From Paludibacteraceae bacterium (GTDB lineage Bacteria > Bacteroidota > Bacteroidia > Bacteroidales > Paludibacteraceae): a DNA stretch of 36,559 nucleotides. The notes beneath the pieces were generated by a model. The model was given only the letters and a program-made list of their open reading frames with translations. It searched no databases and was not told where the DNA came from. The stretch is taken from positions 1-36,559 of the forward strand of contig JAFPNK010000052.1 in NCBI GenBank assembly GCA_017401985.1. The letters are read 5' to 3'. Of this stretch, positions 6,541 to 8,828 are shown piece by piece. Both the position numbers and the translations under genes were made by a program. The stretch's first letter is position 1. Each line of letters begins with the position of its first letter.

Positions 6541-6572
6541 AAAAAAGCGTGAAAGTCACTTGCTCTTCACGC
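6541..6572 (-). terminator. Intrinsic terminator of the 6S-like RNA
   Basis: On the minus strand GCGTGAA (6572-6566) and TTCACGC (6553-6547) form a 7-bp stem immediately followed by six T (6546-6541). Confidence 0.8.
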
Positions 6573-6831
6573 TAACTGAGGGCTTCGCAATCCCTGTACC
6601 AAGTAGAAAAACAACCGAAATCCACGCCCGATATATACAACCCACCTCGCCCATTACGGGCGTGGGAGTGGATAATACATACCCACGAGGACATTCATTG
6701 TTACTGTCTGGACTTGGTACGAAATGTTGCGAAGATTTCAGTTAGTCGCAAACAACGTTTCAATAAACGCCTTTTATGTCACCGCTTTTTTTACGCTGTC
6801 GGTGCCAGCGGTTTGGTTTCGGAAACCTTTG
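6541..6831 (-). ncRNA. 6S-like regulatory RNA (possibly the Bacteroidales-1 type)
   Basis: The transcript is bounded by a perfect promoter (6838-6869) and an intrinsic terminator (6541-6572). Its 3' two-thirds fold into one long rod closed by three colinear helices: 6738-6745 with 6572-6579 (8 bp), 6727-6733 with 6584-6590 (7 bp), and 6712-6720 with 6596-6604 (9 bp). Small internal loops separate them. Inside are an unpaired central region and an apical GC-rich hairpin near 6629-6670. A rod of about 180 nt with a central bubble is the layout of 6S RNA, which mimics an open promoter and sequesters sigma-housekeeping RNA polymerase. About 80 nt of 5' leader (6749-6831) carry small hairpins and may be processed off. 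The structure is seen directly; the 6S assignment is by architecture only. Confidence 0.65.
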
Positions 6832-7204: not shown

Positions 7205-7434
7205 AAAAAAAAGCGCCGTATAGTTTTTTACTCGTGAAAACTCCTGAGAATAGGATTTGAGGCCTGCTTTTTCCTCTGTAATCCGGCCACCTCATCGCTA
7301 CCCGGGAGTTAGGAATGTAAGCTAACCCAATGCACGGGGTCTCGGCGTAGAGTACCGGCACGCCATTAGTGAAGCATTTGCACTCGGTATTAATTATGTG
7401 TTGAGTTTTCCGGTTCCTATTAGCTATACGACGC
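7205..7434 (-). ncRNA. Candidate structured RNA with pseudoknot, family unknown
   Basis: A perfect 11-bp closing helix (7424-7434 with 7213-7223, one G-U) brackets about 200 nt and is followed directly on the minus strand by eight T (7212-7205). Just inside it, two further perfect helices cross each other: P2, 7415-7421 with 7249-7255 (AATAGGA/TCCTATT), and P3, 7403-7410 with 7236-7243 (GAAAACTC/GAGTTTTC). Reading 5' to 3' the order is P1 P2 P3 P2' P3' P1', a pseudoknot. Smaller stems lie between (7344-7364, 7308-7326, and a GGCC-based stem near 7256-7295). It begins about 27 nt after the stop codon of the outer membrane gene, so it may be released from that mRNA or have its own weak promoter. 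It lacks the conserved sequences of RNase P RNA, tmRNA, SRP RNA and cobalamin riboswitches. Confidence 0.6.
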
Positions 7435-7460
7435 TCGCTTAAACTAAGACTTCGCGTGAC

Positions 7461-8828
7461 TTAATCACTATGCCAGCCGATGGTGACGACGATGCGGTGG
7501 GTGTTGGTGAGGATGTCATAAGGTTCGGCAGCCTCATGCGCAAACAGGTCCACTCGTTGCCAACGGTATTGATACGCCACTTGGCCAATAAAATGTTTTC
7601 CTCTATAGCCGATAGCTGCTGATGCATATTGGCTCCATCGAGGAAGCAATGTGTAGGTGTCTTGTCGCACAAAAGAGGAGTCTAATAATGCCGGTTTGTT
7701 TGGTTTGAATGTACTCTCAAAAGCATATCCGGCATTAATGTACAGTCCCATGACCGGTATGATTTCTATTCCGGTACGCAAGGAGTGCACATCGGCTTGT
7801 GCTTTGCCATGACGATAGTCATACTGCAGGCTGAGCAATCCGTAGCCGCCTACTTGGAAAGCCACGGAAGTGGAGAGGTGCAGCGGCATGTGGAAGGTGT
7901 TGTCATAGAAACTATCGTCTATATCCGAGTAGAGCAAGGTGTCCGTTTGAGAACTGAACTTGCCATACGAAGAAGTTCTCAGTCCTCCCAAGGAGGGTGT
8001 TTGAATTCCGGCACCCAGACGCAGCCACGACAGCGGACGATAAATGAGTCCGGCAGAGAACGTGCAACCTGCTCCGGAGAGGATTAAATCGGTCTCGTTC
8101 TCGTTATCAAAATACTTGCCATCGGCGCTCAGTCGCGCAAATTGCTCGTAGTAATCGCCTTTCGAAGAGAGCAAGTAAGACTGAATCTGCATGCCCAAGC
8201 CAACGTACCACTGGTCGTTGATATTCATGGCATAATCAAACGCATATTCGTCCACATACCCACTTTCGGTCAGGGTCATCTGATTGTTGCGATTGAGCGG
8301 GTCGATGGCATAGGCCATACCGATATTAATCGGATAGCTATCCATCAGCGCTCCTAAGGACGGGTCATCGGTTCCGTACGCCTTGATCAATCGACTATAT
8401 GAATGAAGTCTGCGGTAGGAGACGAGGAAGTTATGGAACTGCACCCCACTCCCTGCATATGTCGGAAAACTGAACACAGCCGAAGCCTGCGGCATCTCAA
8501 ACCGGTTCGTTTGGCACGAGACGGCTTGTCCGCTTTGGAGGGTTCTGTCGAAAGCGTCTCCAAGCGTTAACAGGGCTTCGAAACGACGGTATAAGCCTAA
8601 GCCTGCAGGGTTATCTTGCGCTGCAGAGGGATCTGCTCCGATAGCTGTCATGGCCCCTCCCATACCTACATACCGCGCCGTGCCCATGATTGAACGCTCG
8701 CCCATGCGGGCGAAGTCTTGAGCAAATAGCGCAGGTGCGCTGACTGCGCAAAGCGCTGTCAGACCGACTGCAAGCAGTCTGCAGGACCGCTTCGCTGTAA
8801 GACCTCTATCGTTGTAAGACTGTTTCAT
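7461..8828 (-). CDS. Outer membrane beta-barrel protein, OmpP1/FadL/TodX-like
   Basis: The protein has 455 residues with an unusually long signal peptide region (about 1-36, ending SAPALFAQ). The mature N-terminus MGTARYVGMGGAMTAIGADP followed by SAAQDNPAGLGLYRR is the signature of Bacteroidota OmpP1/FadL-type barrels (hydrophobic-compound or hemin receptor annotations). Alternating aromatic strands continue to the end, and the C-terminus HRIVVTIGWHSD is compatible with a last beta-strand. The transported compound cannot be told. Its start codon overlaps the stop of the upstream lipoprotein gene (ATGA at 8825-8828), so the two are translationally coupled. Residues 1-25 are near-identical to those of that lipoprotein and derive from a DNA repeat. 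Confidence 0.8.
   Translation of the reverse strand: MKQSYNDRGLTAKRSCRLLAVGLTALCAVSAPALFAQDFARMGERSIMGTARYVGMGGAMTAIGADPSAAQDNPAGLGLYRRFEALLTLGDAFDRTLQSGQAVSCQTNRFEMPQASAVFSFPTYAGSGVQFHNFLVSYRRLHSYSRLIKAYGTDDPSLGALMDSYPINIGMAYAIDPLNRNNQMTLTESGYVDEYAFDYAMNINDQWYVGLGMQIQSYLLSSKGDYYEQFARLSADGKYFDNENETDLILSGAGCTFSAGLIYRPLSWLRLGAGIQTPSLGGLRTSSYGKFSSQTDTLLYSDIDDSFYDNTFHMPLHLSTSVAFQVGGYGLLSLQYDYRHGKAQADVHSLRTGIEIIPVMGLYINAGYAFESTFKPNKPALLDSSFVRQDTYTLLPRWSQYASAAIGYRGKHFIGQVAYQYRWQRVDLFAHEAAEPYDILTNTHRIVVTIGWHSD
8754..8827. repeat. Signal-peptide-coding direct repeat, copy B
   Basis: About 74 bp that align with 9041-9114 at roughly 85-90% identity by eye. Both contain GTAAGACC-type words every 15-20 bp (GGTCTTACA on the coding strand). 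This copy codes for residues 1-25 of the outer membrane protein. Confidence 0.85.

What the first reader, a model, noticed from the sequence alone, without database searches (positions are those of the whole stretch)
7205..7434. Pseudoknotted RNA of about 230 nt with no recognisable family
Three perfect long-range helices (11, 7 and 8 bp) occur in the order P1 P2 P3 P2' P3' P1', which a plain inverted repeat or transposon end cannot give. Eight T follow the closing helix on the minus strand, giving both polarity and a 3' end. The P1-P2-x-P2'-x'-P1' topology recalls the core of RNase P RNA, but the size is too small and the conserved CR-I and CR-V sequences are not in place. It lies between an outer membrane gene and a 6S-like RNA in a gap without protein genes. 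This is the best candidate for an undescribed element in the window.
Basis: partly seen in the sequence, partly recalled or inferred. Interest (0 to 1): 0.75.

Follow-up and report, generated by a model that had tools for sequence, protein, structure and literature searches.

The report
Divergent 6S RNA of Bacteroidales
This stretch encodes a divergent member of a known RNA family of Bacteroidales bacteria (Bacteroidales-1) that is likely their 6S RNA, predicted to hold RNA polymerase in check, so it is not a new kind of RNA, although the knot-like fold in its lineage may be a new variation.

Summary
The three helices are really there on the minus strand, in the stated order, and beyond chance (0 of 1000 shuffles). 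But the RNA has a family: Rfam RF01693, Bacteroidales-1, matches end to end (43.4 bits, E 1.6e-5, gathering score 60). RF01693 is found in 113 of 121 genus, 180 of 200 family and 79 of 295 order genomes. P1 covaries strongly; P3 is nearly invariant with covariation at two pairs. The crossing helix P2, which makes the pseudoknot, is not a family feature: it occurs in one lineage (32 of 106 genus sequences) without compensatory change there. Bacteroidales-1 and 6S-Flavo occupy the same loci in 5 of 5 genomes with both, and a model built without them finds 18 of 20 further 6S-Flavo loci. The fold is closing stem, central bubble, apical arm. So it is most likely this bacterium's 6S RNA. Verdict: new, divergent member of a known kind; the lineage pseudoknot is the novel part and only suggestive.

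The parts
7213..7434 (-). Bacteroidales-1 / 6S-like RNA gene, 222 nt from P1 to P1' (RF01693 match 7208-7433)
   Evidence: Rfam RF01693 43.4 bits, E 1.6e-5, model 1-179 of 179; the only match in its own genome
7424..7434 (-). P1 5' strand (closing stem)
   Evidence: 11 of 11 P1 pairs show both-side changes over 117 sequences, 80.5% and 91.0% of cells paired in its two halves; own-versus-swapped test
7213..7223 (-). P1' 3' strand (closing stem)
   Evidence: as for P1
7205..7212 (-). run of eight T after P1', likely terminator
   Evidence: sequence
7415..7421 (-). P2 5' strand AATAGGA, lineage-specific pseudoknot strand
   Evidence: ATAGGA-type P2 in 32 of 106 genus sequences (one search lists the rows); no both-side change in its lineage
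7249..7255 (-). P2' strand TCCTATT; in other lineages its TCCT is the 5' half of a local hairpin
7403..7410 (-). P3 5' strand GAAAACTC (inner closing stem)
   Evidence: 97.6% of cells paired over 117 sequences, both-side changes at 2 of 8 pairs
7236..7243 (-). P3' strand GAGTTTTC
7386..7402 (-). central bubble, 5' strand
   Evidence: the stretch after P3 is unpaired in the consensus folds of 6 sequence sets
7244..7258 (-). central bubble, 3' strand with a small hairpin (TCCT..AGGA)
   Evidence: consensus folds; hairpin counts
7335..7385 (-). apical arm, 5' side (GAG of P4 to the base of the variable tip)
   Evidence: helices 4 to 9 of the nested model each hold at least one pair with both-side changes
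7259..7304 (-). apical arm, 3' side, with the conserved GATTACA
   Evidence: GATTACA mostly invariant in A1
7305..7334 (-). lineage-variable tip hairpin, longer than the Rfam consensus
   Evidence: alignments A1 and A2

Best explanation
The minus-strand element at 7213-7434 is a divergent member of the Bacteroidales-1 RNA family (RF01693), which in intermediate genomes shares its loci with 6S-Flavo and is therefore likely the 6S RNA of this bacterium, predicted to bind RNA polymerase holoenzyme by mimicking an open promoter. Shown here: the family match, near-universal presence in the genus, the covarying rod (P1 and P3 closing stem, central bubble with a small hairpin on its 3' strand, apical arm), and homology with 6S-Flavo through relatives. 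Inferred from established 6S biology: the bubble would lodge in the polymerase active site and the enzyme would be released when it transcribes a short product RNA from the bubble. In this lineage the 3' bubble strand is predicted to pair with the closing-stem loop (P2) as well as, or instead of, forming its local hairpin.
For: RF01693 matches end to end (own genome E 5.8e-6). RF01693 is found in 113 of 121 genus (E up to 1; the weakest best matches are 0.48 and 0.02), 180 of 200 family (E up to 0.01) and 79 of 295 order genomes (E up to 0.001); over the cut-off in 19 of 121, 142 of 200 and 55 of 295. Nested model on 117 sequences: 89.7% of cells paired against 78.9% shuffled, 40 of 53 pairs with both-side changes, covariation 0.322 against 0.165 (0 of 500 shuffles), slid versions at most 0.097 (the structure comes from a consensus of part of these sequences, which favours it over the slid versions). 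6S-Flavo (RF01685) matched 27 of 295 order genomes; 5 of the 27 also have RF01693, and in 5 of 5 the matches overlap on the same strand. On the family relative L034 both models align end to end at one place. Model R1, built from 117 Bacteroidales-1 sequences, hits 18 of 20 loci (20 of the other 22 were fetched) where 6S-Flavo but not RF01693 had matched, all 18 overlapping on the same strand. Rfam's own text says '6S-Bacteroidales RNA suggested'. Bacteroides 6S RNA and product RNAs were seen by dRNA-seq (PMC7366714, passages).
Against: The window copy is below RF01693's gathering score (43.4 against 60). The canonical 6S model RF00013 does not match it: 2 of 295 order genomes match, not the own genome nor the other three genomes of its genus and family in that draw. 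No 6S-Flavo match anywhere is over that family's cut-off (0 of 295), and the window matches it only weakly (19.7 bits, E 2.1), so the 6S link runs through relatives. Two of 20 6S-Flavo loci were missed by R1, and four of the 18 hits have E above 0.001. No expression, polymerase binding or product RNA was tested. I could not check that the B. thetaiotaomicron 6S RNA of PMC7366714 is this RNA.
Confidence: 0.87

Rival explanations
1. Bacteroidales-1 RNA is a trans-acting RNA of unknown action, not 6S; the resemblance to 6S-Flavo reflects a shared rod shape or a distant common origin with changed function.
For: Canonical 6S (RF00013) does not match; the original survey left its role open (PMC2864571, passages: RNA 'Y', cis-regulation '?', switch '?'); no functional data here.
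Against: Same locus and strand for the two families in 5 of 5 genomes; end-to-end alignment including ACUCAAC and GGAGUUU; R1 bridges 18 of 20 loci; one match per genome in 79 of 79; closing stem, bubble and arm.
Confidence: 0.11
2. A new family with a conserved pseudoknot P1-P2-P3.
For: All three helices are present and beyond chance; P2 is kept in 32 of 106 genus sequences and in 95.2% of cells in A2, 30 sequences; over A1, 3 of 7 P2 pairs have some both-side changes.
Against: RF01693 match; P2 own versus swapped partners 10.4 against 10.5 in genus, 8.3 against 9.0 in family, 9.0 against 9.0 in order (six of the seven pairs within the strands compared); only 63.2% of P2 cells paired over 117 sequences; no both-side change in P2 in its own lineage.
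Confidence: 0.02
3. A cis-acting element in the 3' region of the upstream outer-membrane gene (attenuator or 3' stability element).
For: In the genus it lies next to the ORF 7461-8828 homologue in 90 of 106 loci, 82 of them with the gene upstream on the same strand; the promoter motif TAnnTTTG is found upstream in only 2 of 27 P2-bearing and 15 of 64 other genus sequences.
Against: In 8 of those 90 loci the gene is on the opposite strand and the other side, and 16 of 106 show no match to it in the DNA held, some of it short; outside the genus the RNA has its own upstream TAnnTTTG (25 of 25 family, 23 of 25 strong order sequences; shuffled 1.0 and 1.8).
Confidence: 0.03

Closest known systems
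Bacteroidales-1 RNA (Rfam RF01693)
   Same: Full-length match; conserved ACUCA, AAUGGCG, GGAUUACA, CUCAAAUC and GGAGUUU; same core helices; one match in the genome
   Different: Below the gathering score; longer (226 nt matched against 179 model positions), chiefly at the tip; P1, P3 and the GAG/CTC helix found here are unpaired in the Rfam consensus; P2 is lineage-specific
6S-Flavo RNA (Rfam RF01685)
   Same: Same loci in intermediate genomes, same P3 strands and bubble, same overall rod
   Different: Window itself only 19.7 bits; the 6S-Flavo model runs from one P3 strand to the other and not beyond
Canonical 6S RNA (RF00013, E. coli ssrS)
   Different: No match by the RF00013 model in its genome
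RNase P RNA
   Different: No RNase P match at E up to 10

Membership tests
Bacteroidales-1 (RF01693) | significant covariance-model match over the whole model | tested here: met
   43.4 bits, E 1.6e-5 in 1301 bases, 5.8e-6 in its genome, model 1-179 of 179
Bacteroidales-1 (RF01693) | score over Rfam's gathering cut-off (a database threshold, not a structural feature) | tested here: not met
   43.4 against 60; 19 of 121 genomes of the same genus do pass
Bacteroidales-1 (RF01693) | core helices keep pairing with covariation between window lineage and typical members | tested here: met
   117 sequences, 40 of 53 pairs with both-side changes
6S RNA, Bacteroidetes type (6S-Flavo, RF01685) | homology with 6S-Flavo | tested here: met
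   for the family: 5 of 5 shared genomes overlap on the same strand; R1 hits 18 of 20 6S-Flavo loci. For the window alone inconclusive, E 2.1
6S RNA | closing stem, large central bubble, apical stem-loop | tested here: met
   consensus folds and pair counts; RNAalifold itself predicts P1 in only some of the sets
6S RNA | match to canonical model RF00013 | tested here: not met
   none in own genome nor in the three other genus and family genomes drawn; 2 of 295 in order; 6S-Flavo is also a separate model
6S RNA | binds RNA polymerase holoenzyme | not testable with these tools
   needs pull-down
6S RNA | template for product RNA (pRNA) | not testable with these tools
   reported for Bacteroides 6S in PMC7366714 (passages); identity with this RNA not checked
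New pseudoknot RNA class (reader) | crossing helix P2 conserved with compensatory changes | tested here: not met
RNase P RNA | Rfam RNase P match | tested here: not met
   none at E up to 10

The most novel reading that the evidence does not exclude
In one lineage of this genus the 6S RNA has gained a pseudoknot: the 3' strand of the central bubble (TCCTATT), which elsewhere folds into a local hairpin, pairs with a new AATAGGA in the closing-stem loop, so that product-RNA synthesis through that strand would break P3 and P2 together and let the hairpin form: a built-in release switch that I know from no described 6S RNA.
Probability: 0.3. Interest if true: 0.5.

Novelty: new member of a known kind. 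Interest (0 to 1): 0.27.

Why it matters
It settles a candidate 'new RNA' as a divergent copy that Rfam's cut-off misses, and it gives sequence evidence that Bacteroidales-1 and 6S-Flavo are one RNA, which supports Rfam's tentative 6S label. It also adds pairings (P1, P3, the GAG/CTC helix) that the Rfam consensus lacks; a model with them scores the window at 187.6 bits (the window was among the sequences it was built from). If the lineage-specific pseudoknot is real, it would be a natural experiment on how 6S RNA lets go of RNA polymerase.

Tried and rejected
Single-sequence folding did not separate the RNA from shuffles. Paper searches for a published 6S identity of Bacteroidales-1: 'Bacteroidales-1' (3 papers; one is only a taxon label); '6S RNA' with Bacteroides and pseudoknot (3 papers, listing), with B. 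thetaiotaomicron and sRNA, at least two of Bacteroidales, 6S RNA, RF01693, with Bacteroidetes, with Bacteroides and pRNA; Wehner 2014 by title; 6S structure terms. Wehner 2014 is not held, so I cannot say whether it already makes the link. PMC9723704 (passage) lists 6S RNA among RNAs detected in a flavobacterium; PMC7160235 (passage) had no bearing. At gathering level, 20 loci (18 distant, plus L033 and L034) gave RF01693 in 6 and two tRNAs in L034.

The P2 lineage was tested harder. Local hairpin of at least 4 bp: 21 of 32 P2-bearing against 71 of 74 other genus sequences (Fisher p 8.5e-5, not corrected for relatedness). On a tree from the rest of the RNA, P2 changes 4 times and the hairpin state 8 times within P2-bearing rows and 3 times in the others, but only 2 supported independent pairs exist, too few for a test. 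P2 duplex energy -7.5 against -3.2 kcal/mol in non-bearers; hairpin -2.2 against -3.5. So P2 stays suggestive.

Rows dropped: of 111 genus sequences (109 loci, L033, the window) 4 were not parsed (L111, L115, L200, L203), and L153 (partial RF01693 match, anchored wrongly by my pattern) was removed, leaving 106. L039 was dropped before because my pattern had found the wrong place in it. One search used 167 of 168; its family set counts two genomes twice (L034/L102, L035/L100), which the later 95% filter removed. Nonredundant set: 179 of 206. In A3 the row L217 had wrong coordinates and is garbage.

Full report
What is in the sequence. On the minus strand of 7205-7434 there are three helices in the order P1 P2 P3 P2' P3' P1', followed by eight T. 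P1 is 11 bp with one G-U pair; P2 (7 bp) and P3 (8 bp) are Watson-Crick throughout. None of 1000 dinucleotide shuffles held all three in this topology. Single-sequence folding energy is unremarkable (z -1.25), so comparison with relatives had to decide.

Family. With an E-value threshold the region matches RF01693, Bacteroidales-1, from the first to the last model position (43.4 bits, E 1.6e-5, gathering score 60). It is the only RF01693 match in its genome, a draft of 1.95 Mb, 82% complete. RF01693 is found in 113 of 121 genus genomes (E up to 1; 19 over the cut-off), 180 of 200 family genomes (E up to 0.01; 142 over) and 79 of 295 order genomes (E up to 0.001; 55 over). In those three searches the control Bacteroides ihuae alone rings, over the cut-off. 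In the own-genome search at the loose limit of E 10, 9 of 14 controls rang, one of them over the cut-off. In the genus the RNA lies next to the homologue of ORF 7461-8828 in 90 of 106 loci, 82 with the gene upstream on the same strand and 8 with it on the opposite strand on the other side. That ORF is a likely outer-membrane protein (only weak BamG and PorV matches, below their cut-offs). In the window and in many of the longer loci trpS (TIGR00233) lies further upstream.

Structure by comparison. For 167 loci I asked whether each RNA's own strands pair better than strands swapped between relatives. P1: 28.6 against 15.8 in the genus (n 69), 29.2 against 21.9 in the family (n 32), 27.4 against 17.0 in the order (n 65). 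P2 (six of its seven pairs): 10.4 against 10.5, 8.3 against 9.0, 9.0 against 9.0, so no support. P3 is close to invariant (17.9 against 17.3, 18.9 against 16.1, 16.4 against 15.2). On the MAFFT alignment A1 of 117 sequences a nested model with P1, P3, a GAG/CTC helix and the apical arm has 89.7% of cells paired (shuffled 78.9%), both-side changes at 40 of 53 pairs and a covariation score of 0.322 (shuffled 0.165, 0 of 500; slid by 1-3 columns at most 0.097). All 11 P1 pairs vary on both sides. Shuffles do not keep relatedness, and the structure came from a consensus of part of these sequences, so the counts lean towards it; the size of the gap and the spread of pair types in P1 and the arm are what persuade me. 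The Rfam consensus shows P1, P3 and the GAG/CTC strands as unpaired. Consensus folds of six sequence sets agree on one rod of P3, bubble and arm; RNAalifold predicts P1 in only some of the sets, probably because of indels.

The pseudoknot. P2 is not a family feature but may be a lineage feature. 32 of 106 genus sequences carry a P2 strand of the ATAGGA type before P3, and all 32 keep TCCTAT (rows). In that lineage 95.2% of P2 cells pair, yet no pair changes on both sides. In the other genus sequences the TCCT strand forms a local hairpin of at least 4 bp in 71 of 74; in the P2 lineage in 21 of 32. This looks like a change of partner, but the tree offers too few independent cases.

6S identity. 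Rfam's line for RF01693 reads '6S-Bacteroidales RNA suggested'. I tested it. RF01685 (6S-Flavo) over 295 order genomes matched 27, none over its cut-off. Five of these (G041, G079, G176, G183, G197) also had RF01693 matches, and in 5 of 5 the matches overlap on one strand; G041 is in the window's own family. There both models align end to end at the same place, sharing the ACUCAAC and GGAGUUU strands of P3. I then built R1 from A1 and searched 20 of the remaining 22 6S-Flavo loci, all from genomes without an RF01693 match and none used for R1: 18 of 20 were hit (14 at E 0.001 or better, 4 between 0.0014 and 0.016), all over the full model and on the 6S-Flavo match (with positions). In the order scan R1 finds 85 of 295; part of those genomes gave sequences to R1. 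The canonical 6S model finds 2 of 295 and neither is in the window's genus or family, of which that draw holds four genomes. The 6S architecture (closing stem, central bubble, terminal loops), its mimicry of the open promoter and its release by product RNA are as described in PMC3847290 (passages). Bacteroides 6S RNA and two classes of product RNA were seen by dRNA-seq in B. thetaiotaomicron (PMC7366714, passages). 6S-flavo and Bacteroidales-1 come from the same 2010 survey (PMC2864571, passages). One Bacteroidales-1 RNA per strain is annotated in P. gingivalis (PMC5771137, passages).

Expression clues. TAnnTTTG, the -7 element of Bacteroidetes promoters (recalled), lies within 70 nt upstream in 25 of 25 family and 23 of 25 strong order sequences (shuffled 1.0 and 1.8), on the same strand, but in only 15 of 64 and 2 of 27 genus sequences without and with P2. 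Together with its place 26 nt after a stop codon, this suggests, untested, that in this lineage the RNA is cut from the upstream transcript or uses a changed promoter.

Neighbour. Its terminal stem changes on both sides between copies from different genomes. It deserves its own look.

Verdict. A divergent 6S-type RNA of a known family; ordinary in kind, with an unproven structural variation in its lineage.

Noticed in passing
window 6545-6745 (minus): Strongly folded element (z -7.19) with its own terminator-like hairpin and a conserved 5' flank; matches in 36 of 61 genus genomes, up to 6 per genome including pieces, three near-full-length copies in each of two genomes. Its terminal stem differs between copies with changes on both sides (CTAACTGA/TCAGTTAG, CTCAATG/CATTGAG, CATCTTGA/TCAAGATG, CTCCTTGA/TCAAGGAG). 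No Rfam family that fits. A candidate undescribed multi-copy structured RNA, arguably of more interest than the finding given.
   Followed up: partly
upstream of Bacteroidales-1 RNAs in distant order members (L036-L072): GTTCTTT, resembling a boxA antitermination element (recalled), lies within 70 nt upstream in 9 of 36 sequences (0.2 expected from shuffles).
   Followed up: partly
window 7435-7463: The RNA starts 26 nt after the stop of a likely outer-membrane gene, and in this genus it mostly lacks the upstream TAnnTTTG motif found in the rest of the family: possible loss of its own promoter.
   Followed up: partly
L034 (window's family), L229-L248: Rfam RF01693 and RF01685 detect the same RNA in intermediate genomes, yet neither shows a clan in the Rfam output; they could be put in one clan.
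   Followed up: yes
window 7305-7334: The tip of the apical arm varies in length and sequence between close relatives (A1 and A2), a fast-evolving hairpin.
   Followed up: no
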